From the NCBI GenBank assembly GCA_947561715.1, contig OX387203.1, positions 8,556,001-8,620,000 of the forward strand: a DNA stretch of 64,000 nucleotides. The letters are read 5' to 3'. The translations under genes were made by a program, and so were the position numbers. This DNA comes from Ascidia mentula. Its lineage: Eukaryota; Chordata; Ascidiacea; Phlebobranchia; Ascidiidae. This document shows positions 6,661 through 58,000 of this stretch, one piece after another (the stretch's first letter is position 1; the number at the start of each line of letters is the position of its first letter). The notes beneath the pieces are model-generated. The model was not told the origin of the DNA, did no database searches, and saw nothing but the letters and a program-made list of their open reading frames with translations.

Positions 6661-9600
6661 CTACGCTTTTTCCACGTAGTTGCTAGGCAACATGCCATAC
6701 TGGCCGGTGCGCATATTCCGCCCTTCCATCCATCCTTCGTCAATAATACTCGCATCGCCGATTTGGTCGCCTTCTTTAAACGATATTTCGTCGTCGTCAG
6801 CTGCGACGTAGTCGAACATTGCTTTGTAGAACTGCAAAATTCCAAAGTGTTGGCTATTTCACAGAAATCATTTTTGTTAAATCTTTGTTGTCAGCAAAAT
6901 ATGCTGCTCAGTTTGTACAAAACCCAATAGGAATTGGATATTTAAAACAGCCGATAGCGCTATTGGATCCAAAACAGTTATTTTGGCCATAGTGCGCTCC
7001 ACGTGGTTCGTCTGTGTTGATTGGTACATAGTTTGTTACCCAACATATCGACGCTTGACCGAAAGGTACCACAAAGTGGAAATCTGTGTGCCTGCTAGTC
7101 TACCAGCTAGCACAGTGCCACATCAACAGCTGCACTGATGAGACCTTACAGGTCGAAACAATGCGTGTATACACCCTGTCTGCAGCTCTCATTGATTATT
7201 ATGGCTCTTTTGCGCATATAAAACAAATATATTAAACTTGCATTGATAAGCCGCAAAAGAAAAAAAAATGGCCAGTTAATAATCATAGACGCTACATCCG
7301 CAAGTTGTGGCGAAAGAATAAATTATCAAAAATAGCTGAAAAATTGTTATCAAGGGTCTTGTATAATGATAGTCGGAGCAATTACAAGTCGAAGAAATGC
7401 GTTTTGCGCATTTACACAAGATAATAAAACACTAGCAACATGATCAGTCTGTCTGTTGTTTGGAATGTATATTTTGCCCTGTGGGCATCATCAGTTCTTC
7501 CCAACAACAGCCAGACTGGTGTTTTGTGTGCATATTACCATTATGGAATGTATACAGTAACCGCTAGGCCAGTATCTGCAGTCTATAGTTTAGATCTAAT
7601 TTTTTCAATATTTGAACTTTTGAAGTTACACAAGATAATATATTATTCGTTTTTGCAGAATTTTACCGGTCCCGAAGAGGTTGGTGGTTGTTGTTGCTGC
7701 TGCTGCTGCGGTGGAGGCATGGGTGCAGCGGCAACAGGCTGAGGCGGTGGTGGACTGTATTGCTGCTGTTGTGGCGGCGGCGGCTGTCTTGGCTGTGAAA
7801 CAAAGACAAATATGTACAAAATACGTTTAATATAAGAACAAAGGAACTGAAGATGCCCACAGGGCAAAATATATATACCAAACAGCAGCCAGGCTGATAC
7901 TCTTGTTAAAAGCTAGTGCTTTGTGTGTATTAAGAAAGGTATACAGATATCGCTAGGTCAGCATCTGCACTCTGCAGCCTATAGTTTAGACCTCAATTTT
8001 TCAATATTTGAAGTCAGTTAAGAAACAAGTGAAGATTTGTTTTCACTGCTTAAACTTACTGACATCAAAGAAAACAGCAAAAATGTGCAAACCAGCACTA
8101 TCACGCCTGTTTACCTGTTGCTGGTATTGCGGTGGTCGCTGTTGTTGTTGATGTTGTTGCTGTTGTTGTTGATGTTGATGTTGTTGTTGACGATTCACGA
8201 TGTTTTCGGGTGGAGGGCGGCCTTCGTGCCCAACATCATGAGGAGCCGTCTATGTGAAAACAACACAATGATTTCTCCAATTTCTTATTTTGCTTAACAG
8301 TTATATAACAAGCGAAAAATGTTGACAATAGTATTGGTCAGTCTGTTTATTCTCAGAATTATGAGCAAATCCGTAAAAAGTGAGTGGTACCGACGAATTT
8401 GCCCTGTCTTGTCAGGCATCAAAAAAAACTTACAGAGAGTGATGGACGATGAGCGTCAGTGGGATATTTTATTTAAAATTCAAAAGTACAGGAACTGACG
8501 ATGCCTTCAAGGCGAAATTAACATTTCTGTATAATATTAAATAAAAGATCGCACTGACGCTGATCGTCAACCACTCTTTGTGCATTATAGGTCCATAATA
8601 TTGCAGGGTGCTCTGCACTGGAAAAACTAAGACATCAAGACAAGCTAACTCGTCAAAGAATAAGTGACTGTATTAACGTGTGTCATACTACCACTTTCCA
8701 CTCCAATAATTTGCCTCAGGTATAAATATTAAACAATACATGGACTCATTCAAAGAAAATTACCTGATATCCAATATTTGAAGCAAGTTTATACGCTTGG
8801 GATGCTGTAAAACATAGTCCAAAAGTTATAAAAGGGATTTTTTTAAATATTCACACATTGCTATATGTAAACACACTCACCTTGTCGAGTTGATACGCTG
8901 TCAGACACTTGTGTGAATTCCTACAAAAACGGTTATTATATTTATATATCTACTTGAATAGGAAATAAATTAAATGCAGGAAAACTGAATAAGATTCGTA
9001 TCATGTCGGAGTATTCTTTTACTCTCACCCTCAATGCCTTTTCCTTGTCCTGCAAAAAAAACAAATTTTTTAATCGGTCGTCGGCGTTTAAGGTCAATCA
9101 CAAAGAGGTTATTGCTATATATGTACCTTTCGGTATTCCAAATTCGATTGGTTCTTTTGCTGTTTGGCCTGCAAATCAAATAGAGTTGTCATTACGTTAC
9201 GGGTCAATTGTTATGCCGCTAGATGATGCTAGTGAGCGCCGAAATCCGAGGCCATGATGTGGTCCTATTTTAAACACTTTTGGTATGTGTGCGATTTGAC
9301 GAAAAAACCTGTTTCGTAACTGACAAATTTTTCTTGCCTTCTTGCCCGTTTAAAACGCTTGCATTGGTTGCAAAAGTGTAACGGTCAAATTTTCAAATGT
9401 TATAGAATGAAGTTACACTATACGAAACGCAGTTTGCAGTACTTACCAGCCTCGTCGCTTCCGGCGTATCAGCTACCGCCGTAAACTTGGTAACTAAAAA
9501 ACATCAATTTCATCAAAACTATTACCCAATGTAAATAAGCATTTTCCGACGAACCTCAATAGGGAGGTGTATATCATTGCATTTTAAGCGAATTTTCAGT

Positions 9601-12600
9601 CAACAGCAGAATATTTAACAATGCAGTAAAGAAACCATAGCAGTGAGCAGCCATTACCTAAAGAGCCATGACTGGGCATTTGTAAAGCGATAAATAAACC
9701 ATACAATCTTCAACACATTACAAAACAGGTCACGGTTCACTGCCAATGGAATTTACTACGGCAAAGGTGGCATTCCCTGTCAGGGCGACTGACTACGTAA
9801 CTGAGGCGATACGGATTGAAGGAATGCGATGTCTTACCTGGGTAATGCACAACGCAGTACGGTAGCTTGTTATACTGAAACAAGAAGAAAGCATGTTAAC
9901 GTACATTTACCTTGCAAAGTCACATATACAATGATACTTTTGTCTAGAAATATACAGTAAAGCAAATCGAAAACGGAAATCACAAAAAGCTTGGGTGCCA
10001 TGTCAAGGGCAGATCCAACGTTTTTCACATTTCTGCGAATAAATTTCATGCCCATTTACGACATTGTGTCGCCCGTAGCTGTTCAAACTTCAAAACCGCC
10101 AACGATATACTTATATAGCGCTCATAAGAGCCCTTTAGGAAAGGGGTTGATCGTCAAGTGAGGGACATGTTTGGAACGCCTACGACACAAATCTCGCATT
10201 TATAAAACGTGGATATCACATCTCACCCCTTTGTAGTTTTTCATATTCAGCTGTAGGTCGCAACTCCAGCACCGAAAGCAAGCTTTGTGCCATGTTTTGT
10301 CCAAGCAGGATAACTTTTCAACTGCAACATAAACATTTGGTAAGAATTGAGCAATACGCATAACTCCGTATTGACAAAAATTTGCCAACAAACTTTTAGG
10401 CGTAAATCTGTGTTAACCAAGTTTACTGGTCCATGGAACCCTGTAAGGATATTTAAGTTGATTAAGGAACGCACAAAAGGCCAAGGAATCAACGTCAAAC
10501 ACTTTTCGGATATCTTCGCCATGTTTTGAGTAAAACCAGATAGCCCATGTAACCCTTTCTAATTTGTCATGGAACCCTAACACGGGAAACGCCAATCTAA
10601 ACGTTTATCGCGTATTAACATATTAAAAAAGATTATTTTATGTTTCAAAGATTCTAAACGTTATATAGTGAGACGGTAAGTTTAAAACCGTAACACAATT
10701 ACATTGAGTAAGGATCCGTTTTATGCAATTCCTTGGCCAGGGAAACCCATAACAACAAAGTAACAAGTACTTCGGTTGTAGTAGATTTTGCACTTCAATA
10801 GTCCCCCGACACGAAGCAATCAAGTAGGACCAAACACTTCAAACTCAAAACCTCGTTTAAACGGACTTAATGGTTGGAGAGAAACAATGCCACCAACCCT
10901 CACGTATCGAATATCCGGCAAGATTAAAGAGATTAGTGGTTGGAAGTGGGCCGAGAGGACAAACAAGGCCGTCGCCGGTCAAGCAAATACAGTGCAGCAA
11001 ACAAAGACCAGACTCTCTACTACCAGATTGCGTGATAGACCTACTTCACAGCATTACACGAAAAATGCACATTAAAGGCCAATAACAGGGTTAGAAAAGT
11101 CACACCAACAAGCTCCCGTACGTGATGGAAAGAATGTAGAGCTTTCGTATACGAGTAAGTGTATATGACTCGTTTTGGTTGCATTGCAGATTCGTGGAAA
11201 AAAGTGCGCCTGTGACTCCCTGTCGTTCGCTCGGTGCATTTGTTGGATCGCGTAACACAGCGGTTGTGTTCCTGGTAAAGCATAGTTTCCCAAACTTAAT
11301 TCTCCAAATTTACCCCCTGGCAGCCTTGGAAGCTAAATTTATCCAAACGTTTCGATAATTTTGCCAAACAGTTGTAAAAGCAAATAGACATTTTAAACAC
11401 ACACCCGAACGAAATTGTATCAAACTTAAAAACACTGCAGCAACGCCAAGAAATAATGTAAAACCCCGTTTGGAAACCACTGTAGTAAAGAGTTTTATGT
11501 CACTAGACCTGTTTTGGGCTCACATAGTTTAGAAGGATTCCTTTGTGCTTTATTAAGAATTGCAAACGTTTCTTAAATTCAAAGCGGACGTATGTGTTCT
11601 GGATCTATTTAGCTTAGTGTTATTGGATACCCTGTATCTTTCCCAAGGGGAAAATTGCGGCCTTAAAGACAAGTACAGTTGCCAAACAGTAAGTGACTGT
11701 ATTAAAGCCAGTCATGCCGCCAATTTTCCTTTAACTAAAAATACACAATTGTCTTTTGATATGCGCTGTAACAAATTTCCGCCTCGTTACAACAATGGCC
11801 ATGCGAATATATGAAAAATAGTCATTGATGACTGGTTTCAACTTCCTACTATTAAAAATGTAAATGCTTTTCTATACAAGTTGCGTTTTACTGCAAAGCG
11901 AAACTTATCGCACATTGTGTTTCGTGTTTGCGAAAGTTCGTCGCATTATGATGAAACCAACAACTGCAGTTTACAAAGCAACTGATTGACTTTCGTTACT
12001 GGGTGTTGAATTTACGGCACCGGTGCAGTTTGACTTTATTGCATGACAAACAAACCGTGTTAAACATCCTGTGCGAATTGGAGGCAATATTCTATGACGC
12101 AACTTACACAGCTGCGTGAAAGTCTCGGGTCCTTCTTAAAGCTCTGTGTAATAATGGCTATGTTTAAGATTCGGTAAACGGTTTACAATTTGAAAACTAA
12201 ATATTGCGTTTCAGAACATCTTTGAACCCTACTGTTCTTCTATTTTAAGATATTACACACACCGAAGGGGTATTATAGCTTTCCGTAACGAAAAACCCAA
12301 ACTAATAGTTTTTTTTTTGTTTAAATTTGGAGGTAAATTTATAGAAAGATGAAACTATACACAATGTTGCCATTAGTTGCTTTTACCACACGATAATTTT
12401 TTCCATGCGGCTATACAGGAAAACAACTTGCCGAATGCAAACAGAGCAACATGAAATCCATATTGACGGTTTGTCAACACGCAATCAGAAAGTTTGAAAG
12501 AATTTAAACGAGCGTGATGTCCAATGACTAACTGAATGCATATACGACAAACCACATTTTCCTACATATTCTACAGAACGTGTTATGCGTTCAAACAAAC

Positions 12601-12841: not shown

Positions 12842-13075
12842 CTTTCAATCGCGGCAGCCTGTATACAGCAACAGTACAAACACTAATATTACCACACAGA
12901 CCTGTTGAAACAAGAGCAAACATTCTTGAGCCTGCGCCAAGACATGACCGTGACCATACAAACACCCACAAACCCATATATATATTTACGAACAACCACC
13001 AAACTTCTCATGTATGACTAGACTGTATTGAAGTAGCAAATCACATTGGAATGGGAAGACTGGCGGTAAGCGATA
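12620..13075. repeat. Duplicated block A1 (contains real LASP exon 1)
   Basis: About 450 bp around LASP exon 1 recur at about 16905-17345 with scattered substitutions and small indels. Shared landmarks are TCCCCACGACAAAATAT at the left, the exon itself, ATCTTTCAATCGCG just upstream of the ATG, CACAGACCTGTTGAA, and AAATCACAT...GAATGG at the right end. Both copies are in the same orientation. Confidence 0.8.
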
Positions 13076-13079
13076 TATA

Positions 13080-16340: not shown

Positions 16341-16349
16341 CGTTCCTTG

Positions 16350-21272: not shown

Positions 21273-24200
21273 ATGGCCACAAACAGCGTAATTACGAGTT
21301 CCCAGGTTGTACAAACAACCCTTGCACCAAACACTACAACTGAGGGATCGGTCGAGTTCATGAAGTACATCATCCTGCCCCTGTTCGGTGTGATATGCAT
21401 CGTCGGGCTGATGGGCAACGCTATGATCATGTATATCATGCAAGTCAAGGTGACACCTTTTGGCATACACTAATTCCATAGAAATACGTTTTGAATTTAC
21501 TTGTATCCAAACATGTATTCATCTTAACATGGGTCTAGGCCCTATTTATTATCACGAAACACAATTTTGATGATGCGAAACAAATTGACTTTTAAAAGCA
21601 AGTCAGCCATAACGAATCAATGAGGTGCAGAGAGTGCGCACTGTTTTGACCTGTTAGGTCTCATCACTGCAGCATTGTCTCTTGCAACTCTGCATTTCAC
21701 GCTGCCATTGTTGCCCCCGAGATGTCGCAAAGAATATTTTTTTTCAATAGATTTGCGGAACTAAAGACTTTGAGTCTTTATGTTCTTCAATAGTGGCTAC
21801 GTCATTTTTCTGCAATATTGTGAAAAACCATTGAAATAGCGATATATATCTGTTTTATTGTCATATCGTCGATACGAATTTGTCATGCCGTCGATACGAT
21901 GTTCAAATCGAATGCCTAGACATGTGATTGTCACGTTGGTTTACGTATCCGATACCGGTTTAAATCAAATGTGCAGGATTCAGAACCAAAATGTTTCCTG
22001 AATATGCCATGAGCAATGAATATGAAAATGACTTTCAAAACAAACCACTGCCATTGATTTTTATGACACTGACAGAGCGACCTTGTTAGTGAAACTATAT
22101 TTCCACTGTATGGCATATATAAATTTCGATGCAAAATTAGATTTTTCTCTTAAATAACATGACCTGGCGGAAAAATTTCATAGCCATCAAGGATTGGAAC
22201 TGCTGGTAATTTGTTCTATGAAGATGAATAGCTGACGTCAAATCTGACATAAAGCGCATCGACCTTAAGCAATTTTCGCCCGCCTAATGGCAAGGCTTTT
22301 CATAATAGCTTGTTTCATAATCTGAAATTCATTAGCAAACAACATCAGTAGGATTAATGCGGATTAATGCATTTCGTGCCCGTCGATGCAATTTCCAACC
22401 TGGTTGATAACTTACCCTTGTCTTAGATCCCCCAGAAGAGCATTACCGACATTTACGTCACAAACCTGGCTGTAGCCGATTTCATTTTTCTGTCTATGCT
22501 GCCATTCTGGACTGTAGACATGGGAATGGATGGACGGTAAGACCCACAACCTTTAAATCTCGATATTTAAACCAAATCACTATCGAATTTATTGCGAAGT
22601 CTGTGTGTTAAAAGCAGATGAAAGGGTACAAAGAGACATACATTTGGGCCCATTTGGCTAATGGGTGTGTGTGGAATAATCGATAACGTTGTAGTTGACA
22701 CAGATTACTCAGTTAACAAGTTCTGACAAAAATGTCTGTTTTGTTGTTTGGGCACTTTTATATCTTGCAACAACAAAGAGAAAAACAAATTGTAACGATT
22801 GGAAATGTACATCATGTTCTTCTGCGGCTTTTTCAATTGTTCGTCTAACCTGTATTGCTGCCATTGTTTGTAGGGGTGCGTGTTGAATCATTGGGCTTTC
22901 AAAAATCTAGTTCTATCCATTAAAGAAATATACAATCACCAAAGGAGGTTCGAGAATTGGATGGTGAATTTAAAAGGGGGGCCATTTCAAAAGTTTAAGA
23001 ATCGTTTTGCCTTGATATACATTTATTGACTAACATTACAGATGGATATTTGGCCGCGTGCTTTGCAAGCTTACTAGTGGGAGTACACACTTTCACATGT
23101 ACGCCAGCGTCTTCTTCCTCACCGCTATGTCAGTTGATCGTCTCTTCGCTGTTGTTTTCTATAGACACAGTCAAAAACTAAGGTATGTGGTGGCCATATT
23201 AGCTGAGATCAATTACCGCAACGTACCAACTAGTTGACATAAATATATGATGTGCAAAATAGTGTATTTCGTAAACCAATACTACATTGCATTCAAGTGC
23301 AACTGAACGCATTCATTAGAATCAGTATATATATATTTTCCGTTTACACCATAGGACTACACCGTATATTAACCGTATTTCCAAAACAAGCAGCACAAAA
23401 TTAAAAGGAGCCATTTACTGTCTGTTGAATATTTAATGCAAAAACCTTTAGCTTCTGCACACACACACAGGCATTGTGCCAACTTAAAACTTAATTTCCT
23501 TTTCTGGTCAAAGTCATGAATATTAATACAATGCTCTGTCAACGTTGTTCGACAGTCGTCACTCATGTAATTCGGTTAGTGCAGAGTTGCATGCACCCGA
23601 CAGGATAACGCCTAATTTTGATCGATGTCGGCACTATTTTACTTCCGTTACATGTTGTTATTTGGTCATTCACGTAATGTTAAGTTGTTAAAATTGTTGG
23701 TGCGATAATTCATAATTTTAATCGTGTTTCGTTGAATTTCCAGTGTTCTGTACCTTGATACCACCGATAAAAACTGCTTATAACTGCCCAACATCGATGA
23801 AATGCATTTCTGGCATTTTTTCATTTTAATTTAGAAAAATTGCGCAACGACTTAATATGAGATAAAAGATATAGTTTACCAAAGCAGTCAAGCTGCATTG
23901 TTTTGGCTTTCGTATGTTATAGCTTGCAATAATCCATACAGCTCTTGCAACGACGTTTTACATAATGAAAAATATATTCGAAGCCATAAACTGTATATGT
24001 AAAGTCCACGCAACATGAATCTGAAAGAGCAATACGGTGGATTCTATTTTAGCGAGGGCTTGTCTGAGATTTACATGCGAAAATCCCTTCAAAATGGCCA
24101 CTTCATGCAGCTTCACGTTTAAACAGGATTATCATTTACACAGTGCTTATTGCCCTTTAGGTCAAGACGAGGAGCTCTGATTGGCTCCATCATCGTGTGG

Positions 24201-27200: not shown

Positions 27201-29309
27201 GCGTGTAATTTAAAATATTTTAATTTTGTTTGCATGACCGTTGATTATAATTATCAAGTGTCGCATTTGGATTAGTTGTTAACGTTTCATGTTTGACACT
27301 TATTTTGCGTTGATTTCTGCTGCAGGATCGGGCAACGACCATGGTCATGGTTGTCATTTTGGTTTTTCTCGTCTGCTGGCTCCCAAACCAAGTTTCAAAC
27401 GTTATCTACGCATTGCAGGGGCTTGGTGTCATAGGTAAAAATATTATTTTTATTTCCACGTACTTTTGCATATTTTATAGCTTTCTAAATTAATCCTTAA
27501 ATTTCTGTGACAAAAAGAATCTAATAACTCTTTATATTTTTTATGTGAATATTTGCTCTTTTAATAACTATTTTTGTAATATATTTACAGAAATAATTTT
27601 TGCATACAGAAGCACCCAAAACACCATCCATCGTTCATTACTTCGTGCACATGTTTAGCACTTGTTTGGCGTGGGGGCACAGCTGCGTCAATCCCATCCT
27701 ATATGCGTTCATGCGTGAAGACCTCAAACTAAAGGTATCATTGTAGTTTCATCACTTTAAACCGTAATTATTTATCAACTGTAGATGCTGGCCTTAACAT
27801 TCCAGGAAAGCGGACGCTTGAAATACATAAGTCGCTGTACTGAAAGTAGTGTTGAATTTATGGGACTTAACACTGAACTTAGTGATGGATTTTTTAGCAT
27901 TTAACAAAAAAGTTATTCTAGAATACCGTAGCTGTGTCTAATCCAATACCTGCAAATTATGTTTTAAACATTTTTACAACATTTAACTGTATATTGACCT
28001 TTACTTAACTTTAATTTTCCTTAACTTTACATCTCCTGGCAAGCGTGCCAATGTTGACACGCGGGGGATGATTCACAACTCGCCAAGTGATATTCGAGTT
28101 TATTTTCCAATATTGTTTTCATGTATGCTCAAAAGAGCCATAATAATCATTGAGAGCTGCAGACAGATGTACACACTGTTAGGTCTCGTTAGTGCAGCTG
28201 GTAACTGTGGCGCTGCTAGCCCAACAGCTCTCATTAATTTCTAGTATTTAAAACTATTACATTGTTTTGCACACAAAAGTTTGGCAACGTAACGTCATTA
28301 AACATGCGCATAGGTCTTTGTGAATATAGAAGAATTTGTTAATATAATTGCTTGGATATAAACTACTTACCTTTATCCCCATCTTAAGCTCTTTATCTCC
28401 GTGTTCATAAGAACGTGGAGTCAAATCGATTCAACTAATTATGATTCCTATGCAAACGTAACAAAACATGCGTCAAGTTTTACGCAATTGCGGATCGATC
28501 GTCCCGCGGATTCAGTTGATAATCCGGCCCCTAGGGAGCTTTGGAAGGAATACTTTGGACGGGCAATCTCTCTGAACTGATAAGTAATAAACAACGCGTA
28601 ATTAGGAATCCTGGGAAAACCACACAGAAGGTAAAGGGGGTGTTAGTGACGTTGGCTTTTGACCATTGGAATCAGAAAAATCGATTTTTTTTCTCAAATT
28701 TCTGGTCATAGTGTAAAGAATTGGCAACGGTTGTCAATGCCCCATTACAACAATTTGGAATGTCACCGAAATATAAATTGAACTTAAATTGTGCGTGTTA
28801 TTAATTCTCCATAATTCCAAAGAATATCAGAAATACCTCCCGCTTTCACTTCCGCTTTCACTCCCTCTTGCATGGGCATATTATTTTTATTTCTCAATTC
28901 TCAATGGCCCAACTATGAAACAAAATCTATAAAGGCGACAACAGCCTAAATTTAAGCACCTATTTTGTTTTACAGTTACTCGACCAGGAAAAATGAAATA
29001 TATTTATCGAAAGCGATCGTGCGTTTTCCAAAAACACTTCAAATTTTTACATTTATGTTCCCGCTAATGATATGATACTGAGTTTCTTCAAATAATAAAA
29101 TTCCAACATTTTAACTTGCAATTAAAAACTTTTGTTTTTGACTTCAGATGACAGAAGTTATTCATTCTTCGATGAAGCACTGCTGCGGTTCAAACATTTC
29201 GGATCGTCTTCTGACGTCAAGAAAGACGCAGACACCCCAAAGGCCGCCGTCTTCTCGCGAAGAGACCTGTCTGGTAAAAACGTCCAATGATTTTGTTCAA
29301 TGCCCTTAA
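21273..29309 (+). CDS. Peptide GPCR, relaxin-3 receptor (RXFP3/4)-like
   Basis: Class A seven-transmembrane receptor. Nine exons with consistent phases: 21273-21449 (N-terminus, TM1), 22427-22536 (TM2), 23042-23182 (TM3), 24161-24267 (TM4), 26656-26734 (ECL2), 26812-26923 (TM5), 27326-27434 (TM6), 27610-27734 (TM7), 29148-29309 (tail to an in-frame TAA), giving 373 residues. Motifs: NLAVAD and LPFWTVD in TM2, C in GRVLCKL, MYASVFFLTAMSVDR in TM3 (DRL replaces DRY), CWLPNQ in TM6, SCVNPILYAF in TM7, and a CC pair in the tail. The TM2-TM3 stretch closely follows vertebrate RXFP3 (LPFWAVE, MYASVFFLTAMSV), which is the basis for the name. Other peptide receptors are possible. An alternative, longer tail is listed separately. 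Confidence 0.85.
21624..21673 (-). ncRNA. Decayed hammerhead copy, core mutated
   Basis: Stem II (GACC/GGTC) is kept. The first core base is G instead of C, the GAA of the second core strand has become AAA, and the cleavage triplet is lost. The flank CACCTCATTGATTCGTTATGG matches the family's terminal sequence. It lies in intron 1 of the plus-strand peptide GPCR, antisense. Predicted inactive. Confidence 0.65.
28156..28198 (-). ncRNA. Decayed hammerhead copy, stem II lost
   Basis: Stem I (GCTGCA with TGCAGC) and a well-paired stem III (ACAG...CTGT plus C) are preserved. The core has changed to CTAACGA, and the second half of stem II together with core GAA is deleted. It should be inactive. 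The flanks keep the family ends (CAGCTCTCATTAAT and TCATTGAGAGCTG), defining an element of about 100-130 bp. It lies in an intron of the plus-strand peptide GPCR, antisense to it. Confidence 0.7.
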
Positions 29310-35100: not shown

Positions 35101-38100
35101 TATTGCTTTATCTTTACCAACTACTAGAGAAAAAATTGCTTCTTATGTTATTTGCTGGAGAATATGGAACAGCATATGACACAAACCATGATGGCTTTTC
35201 TCCCATCAAGAAAATTACCACCAGGCTATAGTCATTTGACAATTTGACATGCGTTTTCCTGCAAAACACATTCATCTCGTTGTCAATCATTTTAAGTTGT
35301 TCGACCAGGCTTATCCCTTATCGCTTTTACCAAAGGTCATCTGTAATTTGACGCTTGGCGCTGAAAATGAGAAGATGCATGCGACAGATGGTATTTGAAC
35401 CTAGATCGAAACCGCCCCATTCGAGCTCACACGTTTAGCGGTTGCTGAGCCAGTGATCCGGTTTGGTTTTATTGAATAACGTTGCGGTATGTTCAATTGT
35501 GTAACGTGGCGACGATTAAGCAAGGTGTGCAAAGAGCGTTCACGGTTGTTAAGCCTCTTTGGTCAAATATACACGCAGAACCCATCCTAACCGATGCCAT
35601 ATTGCCCAAAAAATGCACTATCTCAGCAAAAGCTTCTAGTCTGTTAACAACGAAATGCTTTATTGAATGTTCCTGATATTACTGACCGTCTAAAATGGCA
35701 AGCTTCTCCTTTTTCTATCGAATTTTCGATGTTCGTCGAACACTTACATTCGTACATTTCACCCCATATTTTTTGCATTTAGTTTTGAATACAGACACCG
35801 AATGCAAGATTCACAGCGAATCCTAAATGAAATGCACTCATACCAAATTTATGGATCGGCGCTTGGATGCGTGCATTGCCGTTAGTATCTGTCTACGAAA
35901 ATGCAATTACATTTAAACAAACACTAGGGAATTTAGACCTGGAATAACCATAATATAATGCAATTTTGTCGCCATACTGCGCCAATACAAACAATGGAAT
36001 AATTTTCTTTGACCAATATGAAAATCCATGTCAATATATATTTGGTTCCGGTCAAATAATGGCCACACGTATTCGGTTAAGCCAAGCCCAAACCTTTTAT
36101 CGCTTTTTTTATCTACTGTTTTCCACTTTATGTGAGGAGGTTTTCGGTCCGAATAAGATACAACTGTTCGGCAGAACTTAAACCAATGATTCTTTCATGG
36201 CTGATGGTGCACTTGCACACGTGATTCCAGCGATACTTATAGTGCTGAGCGTTTTTTTTTTAGACAACCTCGCTTGCGTAATTTGTTTTTATTAGTAAAA
36301 CAGCTAACAGGTAACGCAGTTGGAAATATCATTGGTATATAAATATAAATAAATATAAAAGCCTTCAGATAAGCTTACGACGTATCAACAACAATAAAAC
36401 GACGCACTGGTGCATCATTACACAGCCTTTTCCAACCCTGACTTAAGCGTGTGTGCATGTGAGCTGCAGACAGGTGTACACACTGTTTCGACCTGTAAGG
36501 TCTCATCAGTGCAGCTGTTTACTCTGGCACTGCGCTAGCTTTTACACTAACAGACACACAGATTTCCACTTTGTGGTACCTTTCGGTCAATGTCGATCCG
36601 TTGGATACCAAAAATAAGGACCAAAACCTAGAGACGAACCACCGTGGAGCGGCCAAACTACTGCTTGGTATGCAATAGTGCTGCCGGCCCTGTTTCCAAC
36701 TCTCAATGAATATATATATGGCTCTTTTTGCACATATGAGTACATGTAATTATCAAGCTAAATTCTCTTTGTTGGGCACTCTTTTGTAAAAGACTGACTT
36801 TTGTATTACAAAAAGTACACTAGCTTTCGCGAGTTGTCGAGATGCTTTCTTCGACTGCCTTGCGCTTGTTGTTTTTTTGTATTGCATTGTGTTTATTTAC
36901 ACCTGAGGAAGCGAGAGGAACTCGCGAAAGCTAGTATGCTTTTTGTAATAAAAAAGTCAGTCTTTCACAAAAGAGTGCCTAACAAAGAGAATTTAGCTCG
37001 TATACATATAAAGACTGACACGGCACGTCTAATAATATGATGTATTATCAAGAATATCTTGGTTACCTGTCATAAGCGATGGCGCAGAGATGCAATATGG
37101 AAGCTGTGCAACAAGCCACGTCGAAAAAGAGGAATATTTGACACGTGATATTGGATGGCAACCACCAGGTGCGCCCGAACTGGGGGCCGAATTCGTACAA
37201 CGTCATCAATGCCGAGTAAGGCGCCACCAACAGGCAGACGAGTAGGTCGGCTCCAGCTAAAGATCTGCACATTGACGTAAGTTTTTGAGGTGATGATAAT
37301 TTTTGGGGTATTAAATGTAGAATACGAGCTACTAATTACGGAATTGAGATAATATGAAAGTGCGATTTGTACCGTTTTTATTTGCGCGTATTATTTAAAT
37401 GACAGAACAATATACTGTAAGTGTAAAAGAACCATGTTCTGTTGAAGAAACATATACTTTAAAAAGGCTGAATTTTCGAAAACAACGATTGATGGAGTTT
37501 TATGCTTTTTTATGCGTCTTTGTCGGCAAAACAACACGCTTGTCAAACTACACAGGTAAAAAATATGTTGGTGTTATTAAAAACGGGAACATTTGCCTAT
37601 AAATCATGACGGTATACTTTCTAACTAAGAAATTTCAGCCCTTTGCACATGGTCGCGACATTGCTGTTTTAAACAACGAATATTTAACCAACAAATAACA
37701 GTGTGTTTTCCAAACATTCATTTGAGCAACCGAGCATAAAAGAACGGCAAAAATTATTCTTTGTGGAATTTTCTTTTTTGTTGAGGCTAAAAGCGGAAAA
37801 GAGTGCATTCCACATAACAAATTGTATTATGTACGGGACAAAACTGGCGCCACGGCCGTCAAGTGATCAACGTGCGTTTGTTTGGTGTAAACCGATAGGG
37901 TATACAGCCGGAGCTTCACGGCCTCTTGACTTGTGCAAATATAACTCGAATTTGATATCATAAATTGCGATGTGTATTCGATAGAACGGCCCCTTGCGCA
38001 AATATACAGACAAAACAACAGGTTGTCAGTGTATGGGACAAATTCAGCACAATATACGCAGAAAGTGGGAGAATTGTTAAACGTGGATGTAATCTGTTAA

Positions 38101-42578: not shown

Positions 42579-43997
42579 TTACTGCGATTTAAATGCTAAA
42601 AGTCTTTCTGATTCATCTGAACAGTCATGATCCTGTGTGCTGGTGGTTTGGTTAGCCACGTTCAGTCTCTGGTATACAGGGGATAACAAAAAGCACAGAA
42701 TAAGTCCGAAAAGCATGTTGGCACACTGAAAAGAAAGAACGCCGAGGGGGCCAAATTTATGTAACAAAACTTGCCCAACTTCTCCGAATAAAACACCCAT
42801 TGGCTTTACGATACCAGACAGCCATATGGTTACAACTGTTTCATCTATTGGGTAAGTCTGCTGAGTGAAGACGTCATATAAGGTGATCAACGTAACAGGT
42901 TGAAATAGACCCATGAGCACGTTTCCAATGAATAGAAGTTGATATGCAGTTGTAACCAATCCAAGGAGGATTACAACAGTTGATAGGAAGACCAGGAAGG
43001 TGCCGGCAATCGCAAGGCGGTCGTATCTTTTGTATTTATCTACTAGTTTTCCCGCTATGATCGTTGCGATCGCATTAGCGCCAGCAATGCAGAAAATAGT
43101 CCAAGCACCGTCAGTGGAGGCGTTTAAATCCAAGTGTTCCGCTACAGAAATCATTTTAAAGATTTGTGCCATCAACGTATATTCCACAATTGGCGTTTGG
43201 AATACAATACCGAAAATCAAAGTAGCAATTACAAAGCTGCGGTTTGTCAGAAGGTCCTTGGTTTGTGCTAAGAACGAGCTCCAGTTTAATTCGCCGATAG
43301 AATTGCGTTCTTGGTGCTGTTTGTTCCACTGGGCAATTGTGGGCGGCATGGGAGGCACATCGGTTAGAAAAATAAAAAACAGTAATCCAACGACCGCTGT
43401 ACCACCAGCACAAGCCACGTATAATCCAATCAAAGGCGATGTGTTGATTTTCAGCCATTGTTCATGTTCAGCCAATGTTGCATTTACTGGTTGGGGGTTG
43501 ATCGCGTACACGGACACCAACACCCCGAATATGTTACCTATGTTCATCCCGACCCCGTTGACCGCAATGGCCGTGCCAACCTCGTTTTCACAAAACCACA
43601 AAGCAGCAAAAGTTGATGGGGTAGTTAAGATTAACTGCCCAGAGACACCTGAGATGGCTTGCCCGAAGACACTAATGGCAAAGAACGACCTCCTGGCCAT
43701 AGAAATCGCAAAGCACGAAAATGCCATGACGTAAGTGGCTGCACAACTGATACCAATCATACGGAATCCTAGAATCCGTTTAAACGCCAGCCATGAGAGA
43801 GGAATGGTGGTAAATAACGGTGCAACATTGATTGCTATTGTCATCCAATCAACTTGGGCGTAAGAAACTTTAAAATACTCCACGAAAAAGGCACTAATCT
43901 GTCCAAACATCGAAAAAGTTGCCCCAGAAAGTATTTGCAAAAAGGTAAGCATTGCCAGAAAAGCCCATCTTCTCCTGTAGAGTCTTATACGTTCCAT
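42579..43997 (-). CDS. Major facilitator transporter, SLC49 (FLVCR/MFSD7)-like
   Basis: Intronless ORF of 472 residues with about twelve hydrophobic segments. The cytoplasmic start MERIRLYRRRWAFL leads into TM1. The loop after TM1 (VSYAQVDWMTIA) and the TM4-5 stretch (GQLILTTPSTFAALWF, then ENEVGTAIAVNGVGMNIGN) follow the pattern of the FLVCR/SLC49 group, which moves haem, choline or related substrates. The middle loop is polar, a second MFS half follows with KLVDKYKRYDR (an MFS motif-A-like loop), and the tail is acidic. The substrate cannot be told from sequence. The lack of introns beside intron-rich neighbours suggests an ancient retrocopy or an intronless lineage expansion. Confidence 0.85.
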   Translation of the reverse strand: MERIRLYRRRWAFLAMLTFLQILSGATFSMFGQISAFFVEYFKVSYAQVDWMTIAINVAPLFTTIPLSWLAFKRILGFRMIGISCAATYVMAFSCFAISMARRSFFAISVFGQAISGVSGQLILTTPSTFAALWFCENEVGTAIAVNGVGMNIGNIFGVLVSVYAINPQPVNATLAEHEQWLKINTSPLIGLYVACAGGTAVVGLLFFIFLTDVPPMPPTIAQWNKQHQERNSIGELNWSSFLAQTKDLLTNRSFVIATLIFGIVFQTPIVEYTLMAQIFKMISVAEHLDLNASTDGAWTIFCIAGANAIATIIAGKLVDKYKRYDRLAIAGTFLVFLSTVVILLGLVTTAYQLLFIGNVLMGLFQPVTLITLYDVFTQQTYPIDETVVTIWLSGIVKPMGVLFGEVGQVLLHKFGPLGVLSFQCANMLFGLILCFLLSPVYQRLNVANQTTSTQDHDCSDESERLLAFKSQ

Positions 43998-45137
43998 AGT
44001 TGTTTACGTTTAGTTGGTGAACTTGCAGCAAAATAATCACAAAAGTACGTTTCCCGAACTCTCAAAGTTTTTTTCTTGATCTATCCATGCTTAAGCTTGC
44101 ACCGTTTTAAAATAAATCGACTAATTTGCAAAATTTTACAAAATAAATCTTTTTTAAACATCATCGAAATATTTTTTTCAATGGAAACACCGTTGTGCCA
44201 CCAAAGCTATACACCAAACATTCCATCCAAATTTTTGCTATAACTGACTGCATGCTGTATATACTTCAACTGGATGTTGTATTGCACAACATTGCGTTCA
44301 AGAATCACGTTTTCGTACAGCGTTGACGGTCCATTGCTGACAATTTGGCGCTAGTCATAACAGTTTAAACTAGTAACCATTAGTTACACATCCTACTAGT
44401 TTTTCCGGAATAGGGAAATGCCTATTAATCACCCATAAACAAAAATTAAAACTGACACATCAGCAATAAGCGTGCAGGGAATTAATATGAGACAAAGTCA
44501 TTAGGCGCCTATTTAAAGGTGACCTTTAGCCACTGGATCGCGCCTTTATAGTCTAGTAAAATCAATCAAAACGAAAACGGAAACTCGCTGCACAGAACTT
44601 ATCCCCTTGCCCATAGCCACATGCATTGGCGTTCTACAACTGTCTGATACTTAGGGTACAATGAAGAGATAACTCCTTAAGCCGAACTTCAAGTTTAAGC
44701 AGGGTTTCTGCATTCCATACTACGTGTTAGACGACAATCATTCGTAAACTATTACGACTGCACGACAATCATTTTTAAACAATTGGATGAATACGTGTTA
44801 TTCAATATGTGAAAAATAAATTTATACTTGGGAAAGAAATAAATGTTTTGGTCATCGTAACACAAATTTTGTCTTGTTTGTTTGAACCATATGGTTTGAA
44901 CAAATTTACAAATTCGTACCTCTTTGGGAATCGTTATTGCGTGTTTAAATAAGCGCATTGACAAAGTGCAAAAGCGGTTCTTTTATTTTGTACACTTGAT
45001 CGTTCTCTTCTATTGGTTACACGTTTGTTGATAACAAATTTAACATATTAGGTGCACATTGAGTTGATATATTGGGGTGAAACGAATTGAAGCTCTCCTC
45101 AGTTGACGATATAACCAACGACAAACACCAACGGGAA
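43998..45137. other. Divergent intergenic region, transporter and hnRNP genes
   Basis: The minus-strand transporter and the plus-strand hnRNP gene start at either end, so promoters of both should lie here. An in-frame TGA at 45078-45080 precedes the chosen hnRNP start. No TATA box or other site can be assigned with confidence. Confidence 0.5.
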
Positions 45138-49988: not shown

Positions 49989-49994
49989 AATAAA
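49989..49994 (+). terminator. Polyadenylation signal AATAAA
   Basis: Canonical hexamer 161 bp after the hnRNP stop codon on the same strand, in the sequence CATGTAAATAAAATACAG. It is the likely end of the hnRNP transcript. Confidence 0.6.
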
Positions 49995-50692
49995 ATACAG
50001 CCATTGGGCTGTTGATAAAGGAGTCTTCTCATAACATTCATAGCCTGTTGCTAACAAAAGAAAACTGAAATCAGGGATTCACAAATTGTTCATTACTCTC
50101 TCATTTGTGGTTGCAAACAAAATTTTAGGGGGTTACGAAGCTCAAGAAGGGGCAATTCTGCACACTTGTTGGTTTTCAGGCTGCAAATACAGGGATCACA
50201 TTGAAATATTTGTTAGTAAGGTTCAATGATAGAATTCGATTTGATAAGCCCTAGTGTTTAAAGCATATAAATGGATCTTCAAACTTGTTGAGAAGTGACC
50301 CAGCTTCTTCACATATTGCATAAACCAAACCCACACAATAAAAGAGCATTATGTATTGTACCATGATATGATTGAATGAACACTACTGCAGAACAAACTG
50401 GGCGATGAAATAATAGACAGCTAAAAAGATATGTAATACAAGAAGCACATATTCAGTTATGGGTATAAACAAGTTAAATGAAAACCAACCGGTAAGTTTG
50501 AGTTAACGGAAAACAGATATATAAGACAACAGTTGACAATCCAGGTAACAATTAGCAATTGCATCACGATTAAAACAAAGAAAGTTTAACAAAATTCGAT
50601 TACACTTTGAATCAATTGCTTAAAATTACATAACAGAAGGTAAAATGTTGCAGCACTCTTATGAGACAAAATTGGTGATTGCTCACAAAACT
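49995..50692. other. Convergent intergenic region, hnRNP and nurim
   Basis: No gene or repeat recognised. It should include the 3' UTR of nurim on the minus strand. Confidence 0.5.
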
Positions 50693-52343: not shown

Positions 52344-52922
52344 TTTTTATGTCATTTTAAACCTATGTCCACAATACCTGAAATACAAGGAAAAAACTCT
52401 AGATCAATTTTTTTATGTTGCACAGTGGCCTCAATTTACACAACATTTTTTCCATATAAACACACTTGGGCAATTGTATTATGGATGCATCGAATCAACA
52501 AACAAATTTCCACAAAAGTACAGTAAAACAGAAAAAAAGTGATCATGAAAAAGTCCAATCTCCCCACAGAAAACACCCTCTTTATCGTAAGGTCTTCATC
52601 TTTTACATCTTGTTACATGTGTTGCATCAAGCAAATCACATCATCACAACTGATAACAAAAACAATAACAATAAATACAAGATTTTGTTGCGCTTGTTAA
52701 TTTTTTTTTTATGCTGCATTTTAATGCTGATGCTGCCATGCATAAATAAATCAACTCAAAAATTTTTGCTGGCATAATCTTCCTGCAGTTCAATATCTAA
52801 CCATGTTATGCTCTTTATCATTTTGGGAAAAAATCTTATACCAGAAGAGCTTTTTGAGTTAATTCTCCACGTATATTAAAAATTTACATAGGCATGTTTA
52901 TCTTCCTACAAAATCATACCAA
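52344..52922. other. Short spacer between UTP23 and nurim
   Basis: 579 bp between the UTP23 stop and the nurim start. Nothing is recognisable except AT-rich stretches. It must hold the UTP23 3' UTR and the nurim promoter, or a trans-splice site if the two are cotranscribed. Confidence 0.5.
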
Positions 52923-54437
52923 TTATTTAAGTTTCTTTTTCTTTTTACAAGACAACGGATTTGGACCCTTTGACCTTTTTCGTTTTCCAACCCTTTTGGT
53001 TTTTTGCTGCACAACAATTTTTGCCTCCTCTTTCATAGCTGACAGCACTGCCAGTTGATCTTTGGACATTTTTAGTTTTCCCTTTTATCAATAATAAATA
53101 TTAGGCCATAAAAACTATGTTTATATCAAGTAATTATTACTTACTTGGTTAAGGCCTCTCATAAAATTATTTGTAGCCTTAGAGGGTTTGTCCAGAAGAA
53201 TGCTCATTTGGTAAATGTACAGTATTGGCATGCCGGGTACAGATCTGGCATACTTTGTTAAATTGGAATCCTAAATGATAAAGAAATGACTTAACCAGAC
53301 AAAACATATTGTGGCCAAGGTGTACTGGAGCAAAACTTTGCATTTTCATTCTTATCTCCACCGTAATCAAACAACACTAAGAAAATGCATGATCTTGTCC
53401 TCTAATTGGCAATCTTAGCGATCATATATTGGCATAAAAGTCCATTGCATAGTAGATATACTAAATTCTCCCGCGTTATTTGTATTTATTTACAACTATT
53501 ACAACAAGTTCAAACCTGTGTTGCAATGAAGTATTTTGATTCATTGCTTTCTCCAATCATGGACTTCAAGCACTCATAAGCTGGCATTGGTGTTTTATGC
53601 GTGCAATATTTTTTCGGGAAGCTTTGAGCAATTGCTTTGGCACCATGCATTTGTGAACCAAGCAAGTCTAGTTCAGCTAATACACACCTTGAAGCAAACC
53701 AGGGTAATACGTTGGTAACATTCCGGATTAGAAATATTGTAATTTGTATATAGGACTTTTATTCAGCGAAAGTAAATTGCACGGACAATGTGCAGACTTT
53801 TAGACCATTTTTTAGATGGTAATGCACAAACGAATTGTTTTTGCACAGATTATCAGTAAATTTTAGCAACATTTTTTTCAAACTGGTAACACTTAGAACA
53901 AAAAACGTATATACTATTTGAACCAAATTTTAAACACCATTACTATTGTGATAAAAACTATGGATTAAATATAAAAAACTTGTGTATAGTTCTAGAAAAA
54001 TATTTTAATTGGTTTGCAGGCTAACTGCCTTGCGGCACTTAAAGCAGTTATTACATCATGAAGTACTTTTGTGCACTTTGACATGTTTTATGTCAATTCA
54101 ACAAAATGTGACCCTTTGGTATCACTGTCACAAGTACATATGTAAACACAAAAATATCATAGTTTTGGTATAGCCTAACATACTTGGTAGTGAAGCATTG
54201 CACTGGGGAACCCAGGTACTTGGACAGTTGATCATGAATGAATACTTTATTTTTATGAGCAGCTTGAGCGAATGTTCCATCAATTAAGACTTGGTAAGGC
54301 TCGTGGATTCTAATAATCAATAAATTTTATTAAATTACATTTAACTGGGTGTTTCATATCAATCATGGTACTTACTTGAATGTGTTCTTGAACATGGACA
54401 AAATGTGCTTGGCTTGCTTTTGCCGTTTGATCTTCAT
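52923..54437 (-). CDS. UTP23: UTP23, small-subunit processome PIN-domain protein
   Basis: Nucleolar factor needed for early cleavages of pre-rRNA and release of snoRNA. Five exons on the minus strand: 54437-54376, 54309-54184, 53687-53516, 53270-53145, 53081-52923. Product 214 residues (human 249). The start MKIKRQKQAKH is diagnostic. It is followed by EPYQVLIDGTFAQAA, the Cys/His zinc-binding set (CFTTKCVL, KKYCTHK, YECLKS), YFIATQDSNL and a very basic tail with GPNPLSCKKKKK, all family signatures. A PIN-like fold is known for the family. The tail is shorter than in human. Confidence 0.94.
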
Positions 54438-55077
54438 CCTTGTTTTTGACACAAATCCGCCTTTTTACGTTTTATGTTAGTCACTTGCGAACAGAAGAAG
54501 AAAGAATTAGTAGCACCAGTGCCCCACTTCTGACGCAAACAAACCGTTTCCGCTATTTCGTGCAAACTAAAACAATTGGATGCAATAGAGGCAAAACAGG
54601 TCTAGCCAAAATAGAGTTGCTCAGAAATGACATACATGTGAAGTTGTGAACATGTGCGACACAGCAGCAGGACCTGTCAATCATCTTTTCAAACTCTGAA
54701 AAATATACCCTGAGGGGCCGCCCCGCAATAAACCAAAAAAAATACAAAACCCTCTTTCGCCATTTAATAATTATAATTTGATTGCTATGGACTGTGAAAG
54801 AATTGTATGTACAGCCTGTAATATTTCATATAAGGACCTAAATTTCAAACTGAAAAAGTTTTTTTTTGTTGGACTTTCCGAACCCTTGCTCGTTTAGAGG
54901 GCAACATCCTCATATTCTGCGAAATCACAAAAATGGCACCAACTGCCTTTAGGATTGCTTGCTCTGCTATATATCAAACGAAAAGAGGCAGCCTATAATC
55001 ATTGTTATTCAAAGCGAGCAACACAATTGTACAACAACCGCAACAAAAAAGCACGCAATACCATACAAAATTTCCGC
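54438..55077. other. Spacer between neuroligin stop and UTP23 start
   Basis: No gene recognised. It contains the UTP23 promoter region and the neuroligin 3' UTR. A possible ATTAAA on the minus strand lies about 310 bp after the neuroligin stop. Confidence 0.45.
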
Positions 55078-58000
55078 TTAAAGCTTAGTAGTGACAGAAC
55101 GAAGCATCGCACTTGTCGATGGCACAAGGGCACTCGCTCCGGTAGGTGGCGCTGACAAGCCGTCGGAGATGCGTGGACGGGGAAGGCTAGCTGCCCACGC
55201 AGGGTGGTCATACGCTCCATGCGTTAGATTCAGCGCCGATCCAGCGACTCTTGATCCCGCTGATGGACAGAAATTCTGCGCCCCTTTCGAAGATCGTGAT
55301 CTGGGAAATTCTGACTCAGCGTCTTCGTGAACTGGTTGTTGTCGGAGGTCAAACTCTCCACGTTCGTAGCAAACGCCCAAAGCGGAGTGGCAGCGAATCG
55401 GGTCTGGATAACGCTGGAATCTGCTGCTCGATTCCCCACACTGTGGCGCACCTCTTATAGCTTGGTGGTAACTCTGCCTCGATGGAAAAGGTAAGGTCTG
55501 CCGCTCGCCTGCGCCTTCAACTCGATTCCAGTAGCTTGGAGGAGCATCGTTGCAGTCACCACAGTTGTTGATGAACGCCACATCGCTGATCGATCCGACG
55601 CTAGATGCCTCAGTCATAGCTCCGTCGCCTCCCTTGCGTGGACTGATAGACTTGAAATGCAGGCAGCTCTGATGGGAAGATGTTTCAGTGCAGGAATCGC
55701 GGGGCTTTTGCCTTGAGAGAATGTTACTGCCATCGTTCTTGGCGTTGGAAAACGGCACCAACTGTTCCAGCGGTGCCGAAGCGCCGGACACTTTGGCTCC
55801 TGGCGGCAAGGTCGCCATTCCGTTGCTTTTTGGAATGCTGTGAGTTTTTTCGGTGCTCACTTCAGGTTCGGACTGAACGCACGATTCCAACGTGGTGTTC
55901 GCGCTGGCCAAGGACTTTGCGTTGCGAAAATTTGAGCCTTCGTGTTGTCTGTATGCTTTCAGTTCCGATTGTAGCTTCTGTAATAGAAAACAGCAGATTG
56001 TCACGTACAAGGCCGCGGTATTAGAATCAGGCGAAAAATAAGTTTGAAAACAATTCGTTCTTCTTATATATAAGCATATAGAAATGCGTGTCAAATCGTT
56101 TTCTCGTGAGTATTTGTGTCCGAAAGTTAAAACTAATATTTGTCCTTCAGACATAGGGACGATTTTCATACGGTAGATGTATAGGTTCATAGTACATGAC
56201 CGTATTTGTTAAGAGGAACGGTCCCACTGTTAATTATCGATTATATGTATGATATATGTATTAATAAAATAAAGAAGTTTAAACGGTGCGGGAAACCGTT
56301 TTTGTAGGTCATATGAGATTGTATGGAGGGTAAGGCATTTGCGGTAAAACCACTCATTTTGAAACCAAACAATTATGTTCATGAGCTTCCTTTGGACAGT
56401 CGGCCCCCTAGAAATGTATGGGCCCTTGTGCGCCCTTCTCTTGGGGCCAGCTGATCTTTTGAAAATTTATGTTCTAGTCGGTATTGTAATTGTACATTTC
56501 TAATGGTTTCTGTGAGCTGCTTACATATGGCCAATGTTTCGACCTACAAGGTCTCGTCAGTGCAGTTTGGTGGAAACAGGGGCCATCTGTATACAGCTCA
56601 CTGAAATCATATATTATTGGCTCCACTTGCTTATATATAATTCTAATGGTGGTAAACTCTACCTCAATTCGAAACTTGTCGCGTTCCTTGTGGTAGGAAA
56701 CAACAGCGAATGCGATGATGTTTACGAAGAGAAGAACAAACCCCACGGCCAGAGTGATGCTGAGTTGAAGGGAAAGTCCCCCTCCGTCCGTTGAGTTGTC
56801 GTTTCTGTCCGTCATAAATTTAAGAGACTCCATGCTAATTCTACAAGGTTGGAAATTGAATGATTGTGTATAAACTGAAAAAATCAATCTGGCGGACAGC
56901 CCTTTAGGATGTTTAAAATCAGAAAAATATATTTCGCCCTCTAAAGGGCATCATGAGTTTCTGCGGAATGCAAAACTCAGAAGCAACGAAAAAAAGAAAG
57001 TTTAAAATACTGATTTTTCATCTGTTGAATGATTATTTGAAGGAATTGGTAATTTATTCAAATAGAATAAGAATTGATGATGCCCAATAAAGCGAAACGT
57101 GTATTCTGAAAATAGAAGCGTTGAAACAAAGTTATTAGAATATTATTTTAAATATAGTCATTTTTATAATTGACGAAGCCACAGGCCTCAGTTTTGATCC
57201 GACATGGGAGGAATATTTGCAGAAAGTGGTACGGTGACATTCTACATACATATTATCACGAAATACCGATCGGCATCGTCAGTGTCACTTTACCATACTC
57301 AAAACACTATGGTTTCACATACTGTTCAAATTCTTGGTTGATCTCTCATGCGACTTTTCATTAGTGCGACTAAACTTCGCTTACTTGTTTGGTTTAAATG
57401 GAACCACGCGTTTACGAGGAGATGAGGAGTTGCTGAATGACGACACACGTGGTTTGTCGGTATCGTCTGGTGGGTACATGTCACATGCAACGGCCCCGCA
57501 ACTGGTCTGCAAAAGTTGTACGTTCATCCTCTATAGTAGCGTTTCATAACCAACAGGCTTTGCAGGGTTACCATACACCATACATGTTTGCTTATTTTCA
57601 CAAGCATGTGTCTCCGAAAATGCAATTGTGCTTATTTCTGAGAAACGAGCTTATTTTGGACGTGCGTGCTTCAAAAATACAGAGTATTGGTCATGGCGCG
57701 GTGCTGGACGTTTCAAAATTGACCATGTCCATAAACGGTCAACCATTCTGACTAAAAATTAGTAATATTCTCAAAATTGGACGGACTTCGGACACAAATC
57801 CGATATTTCGGCTTTATAAAACAGGGCTCTTTTTTTCAGTCCATTTTTAAGGCAACCCTAAATTTTTTTTTTTATCTATTGGTCACAGAGCTGAAAGAAA
57901 GTATGAACAGCAAAATATATTGAAAAAAGTATACGAGAAGTGCATATTATTGCCAGGTGGTTGTCTGCCTTCAACGAATCAGGTCTTTAGACTACATTAA

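What the first reader, a model, noticed from the sequence alone, without database searches (positions are those of the whole stretch)
6925..56635. Five-copy hammerhead MITE family in 64 kb, in every stage from intact to decayed
Copies at 7.1, 21.6, 28.2, 36.5 and 56.5 kb share the ribozyme and the terminal sequence CAGCTCTCATTGATTATTATGGCTC, which also appears inverted at the far end of the 36.5 kb copy, so the element seems to be a terminal-inverted-repeat transposon carrying a ribozyme. This combination differs from the known carriers (Penelope-like elements, retrozymes, satellites). All five copies are in introns, two sense and three antisense. I cannot say whether the family has been described before.
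Basis: partly seen in the sequence, partly recalled or inferred. Interest (0 to 1): 0.85.

Follow-up and report, generated by a model that had tools for sequence, protein, structure and literature searches.

The report
Sea-squirt hammerhead retrozyme with two-ended insertion
These are not DNA transposons but short non-coding RNA-derived repeats carrying a hammerhead ribozyme, and the way their two ends sit in the genome carries the fingerprint of Penelope-type retrotransposons, which had been suspected of moving them.

Summary
The five related copies exist, but the element is not a terminal-inverted-repeat MITE. It is a 293-bp non-coding unit with a type I hammerhead, found elsewhere in tandem arrays of up to about three units. 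It fits the metazoan non-LTR retrozymes (PMC7229834), in what is almost certainly Ascidia mentula. The genome holds 3,618 hammerhead cores at ≤3 mismatches; the backwards control gives 0. Of 48 independent insertions outside the window, 26 are head-to-head, both outer ends being the RNA's 3' side. Target duplications (mode 12 bp) flank 32 of 48; mismatched-locus controls reach that score in 2.1%. In the 29 insertions with the best duplications, all 48 ends fall at unit positions 3-16 or 29-44, and all 19 two-ended ones have one of each. [quoted passage not shown] PLE mobilisation of retrozymes had rested on shared features and co-occurrence. The enzyme link is inferred, not shown.

The parts
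6949..7221 (+). Retrozyme copy, nearly a full unit: unit 62..293 then 1..41; 96% identical to the L019 unit; long-tail 3' end
7114..7206 (+). Type I hammerhead: stem I AGCUGCA/UGCAGCU extended by AUCAA/UUGAU and GCCA/UGGC, core CUGAUGA, stem II, GAAA, stem III; expected cleavage after GUC (after 7180)
   Evidence: sequence; fold (stems I and II predicted; shuffle z-score only -0.36); conservation
21605..21673 (-). Old retrozyme fragment around the hammerhead, 77%
28124..28220 (-). Old retrozyme fragment without a recognisable core, 75%; a possible inverted arm at 28225-28269 is not significant (score 31, best shuffle 41)
36457..36688 (-). Retrozyme main arm, 81%, hammerhead core intact; outer end at unit 12 (short)
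36689..36751 (+).
36749..36757 (+). Left 9-bp target duplication ATTATCAAG of the neighbouring PLE insertion (its first bases overlap the fuzzy end of the retrozyme alignment)
36759..37042 (+). PLE pLTR insertion with hammerhead-like motif: inverted arm 36759-36835 (-), gap, main arm 36846-37042 (+); outer ends at L080 positions 319 and 358, i.e. about a 39-nt tail on one side
   Evidence: sequence
37044..37052 (+). Right 9-bp target duplication ATTATCAAG of that PLE insertion
56532..56565 (-). Old retrozyme fragment, hammerhead core with 3 mismatches
56569..56637 (+). Probable inverted arm of the 56.5-kb copy (unit 264..40), marginal: score 43, best of 100 shuffles 41

Best explanation
A non-autonomous metazoan retrozyme. 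Its RNA, cut to units by a type I hammerhead and used as a circle or as an uncut multimer, is copied into DNA at staggered nicks about 12 bp apart. Both nicked strands can prime reverse transcription. One cDNA starts near position 11 after the ribozyme cleavage site, the other near position 38. The two 5'-truncated cDNAs are then joined, giving a head-to-head insertion with a tail at one end only. Where only one cDNA succeeds, a direct, 5'-truncated copy results. The enzyme is most likely supplied by PLEs (reverse transcriptase plus GIY-YIG endonuclease), several of which have long open frames here. Shown here: unit, tandem arrays, ends, duplications, the one-of-each pattern, PLE presence. Inferred: self-cleavage, form of the template, PLE enzyme.
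For: Tandem spacing of 286-295 bp between cleavage sites in 13 of 78 loci scanned (some overlap); no open frame over 70 aa. The hammerhead folds as expected (shuffle z-score weak) and 95.9% of paired cells stay standard in 56 distinct copies against 21-39% when partners are slid. 26 of 48 independent insertions are head-to-head; of 22 with both ends classifiable by blast, 20 are short+long (37 of 200,000 permutations reach that). With duplication-defined ends, 48 of 48 ends lie in 3-16 or 29-44 and 19 of 19 two-ended insertions have one of each (29 of the 48 insertions; chance for a balanced pool 1.5e-5). Duplications: score ≥6 in 32 of 48, mode 12 bp (14 of 32), 75% AT against 63% in flanks; mismatched-locus control 2.1%. 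Inner junctions join unrelated unit positions, 15 of 26 with 0-7 nt overlap, 11 of 26 with 3-40 nt unassigned between. 47 of 48 insertions contain a piece copied across the ribozyme cleavage site. Laps and arms within one insertion resemble each other more than the median other insertion in 21 of 22. PLEs: 121 GIY-YIG matches (150 of 382 candidates scored), 19 of them in open frames of 732-892 aa; an RT domain in one 892-aa family member (L082, E 9.7e-11); neighbouring GIY-YIG matches within 6 kb are 17 head-to-head, 0 tail-to-tail, 6 tandem. PLE precedents: head-to-head pLTRs, 31-bp tail on one of the inverted pLTRs, 8-10-bp duplications in Adineta vaga (PMC3846280, passages); two start sites bounding a 30-40-bp tail and extension of both strands by an Anolis PLE protein (PMC11167929, main-text section). 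A PLE next to the 36.5-kb copy shows head-to-head arms, a 39-nt end difference and a 9-bp duplication.
Against: No PLE with the retrozyme's own end sequence was found; the two pLTRs read have no significant blast similarity to it. No RNA or cleavage data. The hammerhead's folding energy is not better than shuffles (z -0.92 and -0.36) and covariation is absent (2 double changes; slid controls 0-3). In vitro the Anolis PLE showed no difference in start site between strands, whereas here the two ends differ. Lap identity does not single out a circular template: several arrays differ by 2-4% between laps, and in only 1 of 22 is within-insertion divergence below that to the closest other copy. The short/long classes were set after seeing the data; of 26 head-to-head insertions 4 had an end outside both classes and 2 broke the pattern (L018 long+long, L070 short+short). 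Those two and most out-of-class ones lack a duplication at the score used, so the 19 of 19 is for the duplication-flanked subset. 16 of 48 insertions have no duplication at score 6.
Confidence: 0.82

Rival explanations
1. A terminal-inverted-repeat DNA transposon or MITE that happens to carry a hammerhead, moved by a transposase in trans.
For: Inverted termini in 26 of 48 insertions and duplications of fairly constant length.
Against: No fixed inverted repeat: none detected in 22 of 48; the shorter arm ranges from 21 to 530 nt; direct copies are 5'-truncated at scattered positions; tandem multimers; the two ends differ by about 27 nt.
Confidence: 0.02
2. The unit is the solo or tandem pLTR of an autonomous PLE in this genome rather than a separate retrozyme.
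For: Same insertion signature as PLEs and a type I hammerhead near the end, as in PLE pLTRs.
Against: 0 of 17 GIY-YIG matches on C1 and the first 10.2 Mb of C2 lie within 5 kb of a listed exact hammerhead core (nearest 32 kb), but only 100 of 3,618 cores were listed and 150 of 382 GIY-YIG candidates scored, so a matching PLE may be missed. The two PLE pLTRs read are unrelated to the unit, and by eye their hammerheads lack a long stem III.
Confidence: 0.1
3. A SINE-like repeat moved by a LINE, with inversions made by twin priming.
For: Reverse transcriptases are abundant (150 of 150 scored RVT_1 candidates match, their type not determined); twin priming is known to invert 5' parts (recalled).
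Against: Twin priming should place the inverted outer end at scattered internal positions (recalled); here both outer ends are at two 3' sites in 19 of 19 duplication-flanked two-ended insertions. No A-run of five or more in the unit.
Confidence: 0.04
4. Head-to-head copies arise by self-priming (snap-back), as proposed for Adineta PLEs, not by priming from both nicks.
For: Proposed for PLE inverted repeats with palindromic junctions (PMC3846280 passage).
Against: Arms meet at unrelated unit positions (for example 113 with 293, 277 with 144) and the two outer ends use different start sites in 19 of 19; snap-back predicts matching positions at the turn.
Confidence: 0.08

Closest known systems
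Metazoan non-LTR retrozymes (Cervera & de la Peña 2020, PMC7229834; abstract, passages, sections 14 and 17 read)
   Same: Type I hammerhead, ~170-400-nt non-coding unit, tandem dimers and multimers, thousands of copies, no LTR, duplications over 4 bp
   Different: That main text mentions target duplications but holds no 'inverted' or 'truncated', and proposes PLE mobilisation from shared features and co-existence; here the insertion ends give structural evidence
Penelope-like elements of Adineta vaga (PMC3846280; passages read)
   Same: Head-to-head inverted ends, a 31-bp tail on one of two inverted ends, 8-10-bp duplications, microhomology, partial tandems
   Different: Those encode RT and GIY-YIG; the retrozyme encodes nothing, its tail is ~27 nt and its duplication ~12 bp
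Anolis Poseidon PLE in vitro system (PMC11167929; main-text section read)
   Same: Two reverse-transcription start sites bounding a 30-40-bp tail; both DNA strands cut and extended; AT-rich target
   Different: There no strand difference in start site was seen; here each duplication-flanked two-ended insertion uses one site at each end
Minimal hammerheads of PLEs (Cervera & de la Peña 2014; Lünse et al. 2017; neither held, known through PMC7761336 passages and recall)
   Same: Type I hammerheads linked to PLE ends; similar motifs are in this genome's PLE pLTRs
   Different: The retrozyme hammerhead keeps a longer stem III and an extended stem I

Membership tests
Metazoan non-LTR retrozyme | Type I hammerhead with intact core | tested here: met
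   Core and stems in 56 distinct copies, 95.9% standard pairs; fold. Against: no Rfam match over the gathering score in the window, and 26.7 bits at best genome-wide, below the cut-off of 34
Metazoan non-LTR retrozyme | Tandem unit of ~170-400 bp | tested here: met
   Cleavage-site spacing 286-295 bp in 13 of 78 loci scanned, some of them overlapping; one stretch of 902 nt
Metazoan non-LTR retrozyme | Low GC; no coding capacity | tested here: met
   GC 47% (under the paper's text value of 50%, not under its figure-legend value of 45%); longest frame 70 aa
Metazoan non-LTR retrozyme | Target duplications, when present, longer than 4 bp | tested here: met
   32 of 48 at score ≥6, mode 12 bp
Metazoan non-LTR retrozyme | Self-cleavage and circular RNA in tissue | not testable with these tools
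   No RNA data or bench work
Penelope-like element | Encodes RT and GIY-YIG endonuclease | tested here: not met
   Retrozyme unit has no frame over 70 aa; the enzymes are in separate PLEs
Penelope-like element | Insertion signature: head-to-head arms, tail at one end, short duplication | tested here: met
   26 of 48 head-to-head; 20 of 22 short+long by blast ends, 19 of 19 by duplication-set ends; duplication mode 12 bp
TIR DNA transposon / MITE | Fixed inverted repeats at both ends of intact copies | tested here: not met
   None detected in 22 of 48; shorter arm 21-530 nt; ends differ

The most novel reading that the evidence does not exclude
Retrozymes are mobilised by PLE machinery through two-ended target-primed reverse transcription with a fixed division of labour: one nick primes at RNA position ~11 and the other at ~38 after the ribozyme cut. 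Because both sites lie 3' of the cut and the copies run back across it, only a circular or uncut RNA can serve, so the ribozyme's circle would be the template. Each retrozyme insertion would thus be a readable record of PLE integration.
Probability: 0.5. Interest if true: 0.72.

Novelty: new member of a known kind. Interest (0 to 1): 0.55.

Why it matters
What moves animal retrozymes has been an open question; PLEs were named as candidates because of shared features and co-existence (PMC7229834 discussion). The insertion ends described here tie retrozymes to PLE-type integration in one genome, and give a countable pattern (one short and one long end per two-ended insertion) that a model of PLE integration must explain. 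The same count can be made in other genomes with retrozymes. Short, numerous retrozyme copies may be better material for this than the long PLEs themselves.

Tried and rejected
MITE with fixed terminal inverted repeats: rejected by variable arms and unequal ends. Rfam scan of the window: nothing over threshold. Rfam Hammerhead_1 in the genome: 32 matches, none over the cut-off; the 14-genome control also rang in 11 below cut-off, so this is weak support only. RVT_1 search to pair RT with GIY-YIG by position: I saw no useful pairing among the 150 scored. Sequence similarity between retrozyme and two PLE pLTRs: none significant. Solved-structure search with a PLE RT fragment: none at 0.001. Covariation: too little variation. 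Circle versus multimer template by lap identity: not resolved. Intron/orientation bias: not resolved. Literature: in the listings and the passages I read I saw no report of head-to-head arms or a PLE tail in retrozymes; only open-licence PMC papers are held, and two key papers are not.

Rows dropped before counts: one search had 68 elements. For some searches I kept one per duplicated locus by the flank comparison (dropped L011, L012, one L013 copy, L015, L017, L041, L042, L047-L050, L052, L064) and dropped one secondary match each in L028 and L053, leaving 53: 5 in the window, 48 outside. One search used the 29 of 48 with duplication score ≥7. A stray 21-nt match in L027 was left out from then on. 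Loci are not a random sample: L009-L028 are the best whole-unit matches, L039-L078 carry exact cores on C1. The mismatched-pair control was made on the 68 before removal of duplicates.
Full report
What the window is. The window is C71:8556001-8620000 of a 195.8-Mb genome in 79 contigs. Its mitochondrial contig is 19,461 bp, and conserved COX1 glycines appear when it is read with the ascidian code. The paper on Ascidia mentula gives 197.0 Mb, nine chromosomes and a 19.46-kb mitochondrion, and the six chromosome lengths I saw agree with contigs here to within 0.01 Mb (PMC11109543, abstract and passages). Total size and scaffold number differ a little (95 scaffolds there). The species is inferred from that match.

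The observation. Five related copies are present. Four keep the 25-nt hammerhead core with ≤3 mismatches, none in 100 shuffles; the 28.2-kb copy does not. The quoted terminal 25-mer is found at two places only, but the 36.5-kb copy does have an inverted terminal piece. The intron and orientation claims are unproven; the hammerhead strand is one plus, four minus.

The unit. Elsewhere the family is tandem: cleavage-site spacing of 286-295 bp in 13 of 78 loci, some overlapping, and one stretch of 902 nt, about three units. I took a real 293-bp unit from L019 and counted from the ribozyme cleavage site. It has 47% GC and no frame over 70 aa. The ribozyme is a type I hammerhead with an extended stem I. 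The predicted fold is the expected one, although the energy is not better than shuffles (z -0.92; window copy -0.36). In 56 distinct copies 95.9% of paired cells are standard, against 21-39% with slid partners; covariation is not informative (2 double changes, slid controls 0-3). Stem II lies within the pattern by which the C1 loci were chosen, so its invariance is partly selection of the sample. The genome has 1,824 forward and 1,794 reverse cores at ≤3 mismatches; the backwards control has 0.

The ends. I removed segmental duplicates by flank comparison, leaving 53 insertions, 48 of them outside the window. Of these 48, 26 are head-to-head: both outer ends are the RNA's 3' side and the arms meet inside at unrelated unit positions, 15 of 26 with 0-7 nt overlap and 11 with 3-40 nt unassigned between. 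Of 22 with both ends classifiable, 20 have one short (1-22) and one long (29-52) end, one (L070) is short+short and one (L018) long+long; four others have an end outside these classes. I set the classes after seeing the distribution. Of 200,000 permutations 37 reach 20.

Duplications. A duplication score of 6 or more (up to one mismatch in these) is found in 32 of 48 insertions, against 2.1% of mismatched-locus pairs; 16 of 48 have none. Lengths: 12 bp in 14, 11 in 7, 10, 13 and 14 in 3 each, 8 and 9 in one each. They are 75% AT, flanks 63%. For the 29 insertions with score ≥7 I let the duplication set the ends. All 48 such ends then lie at 3-16 or 29-44, and all 19 two-ended insertions have one of each, a median of 27 nt apart by my count of the rows. 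For balanced random pairing that has a chance of 1.5e-5. The two pattern-breakers are not in this subset because they lack such a duplication.

How it most likely works. The start sites lie 3' of the ribozyme cut, and 47 of 48 insertions contain a piece copied across the cut site. So the template was circular or uncut there. Both nicks prime; each uses its own start site; the cDNAs are 5'-truncated and joined. One-sided cases give direct copies, whose 3' ends are 12 short, 12 long, 3 other (window copies included, the 36.5-kb one among them although one search shows its second arm). Laps and arms within an insertion are more alike than the median other insertion in 21 of 22, but below the closest other copy in only 1 of 22, so the template's form is not settled.

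The enzyme. GIY-YIG gave 121 matches, 19 of them in open frames of 732-892 aa (150 of 382 candidates scored). One 892-aa family member has an RT domain, and two PLE ends were read. Within 6 kb, neighbouring GIY-YIG matches are 17 head-to-head, 0 tail-to-tail and 6 tandem. In the window itself a PLE pLTR pair stands beside the 36.5-kb retrozyme, head-to-head, with outer ends 39 nt apart in element coordinates, flanked by ATTATCAAG at 36749-36757 and 37044-37052. That 9-mer alone is not rare (expected 0.76 in the window, found 3 times). Published PLE insertions have the same features (PMC3846280 passages), and a purified PLE protein starts at two sites bounding the tail and extends both strands (PMC11167929 main text). 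I did not find the specific partner: 0 of 17 GIY-YIG matches on C1 and part of C2 are within 5 kb of the 100 listed exact cores, and the two PLE ends have no significant similarity to the unit.

Place among known things. As an element it is a new member of the metazoan retrozymes (PMC7229834, abstract, passages and two sections). That paper names PLEs as strong candidates for moving them, from shared type I hammerheads, tandem copies and co-existence; a curation guide repeats that they may rely on PLEs (PMC8969392, passages). A sea-squirt genome paper reports 9 type I hammerhead loci in Didemnum vexillum without more (PMC8704543, passage). In the searches I saw no report of head-to-head arms or a PLE tail in retrozymes; subscription papers are largely missing, so this is weak evidence of novelty.

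Noticed in passing
window 59148 +, 62514 +: Further PLE-type minimal hammerhead strings (CTGAGGAAGC...GAAA), the first close in form to the 801-aa PLE family's pLTR (L081)
   Followed up: partly
window 51314 +, 59803 +, 17599 -, 8495 +: Other hammerhead-like strings; may be further PLE ends or chance
   Followed up: no
L029-L036, L038: Rfam-detected hammerheads are other, probably older, subfamilies of the same retrozyme with different stem-II loops and stem III; L031, L034 and L038 show inverted self-matches
   Followed up: partly
L012 and L013 (C67:5.98-6.01 Mb); C52:5.986-6.004 Mb: Retrozyme insertions carried along in local duplications (flanks 94-98% alike in L012/L013; three copies ~8.8 kb apart on C52)
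   Followed up: no
G000 contigs C15, C21, C49, C51: RVT_1 matches lying in open frames of 3,977 to 19,197 aa on small contigs; unexplained
   Followed up: no
window 42582-44003 -: MFS transporter open frame of 474 aa (Pfam MFS_1)
   Followed up: no
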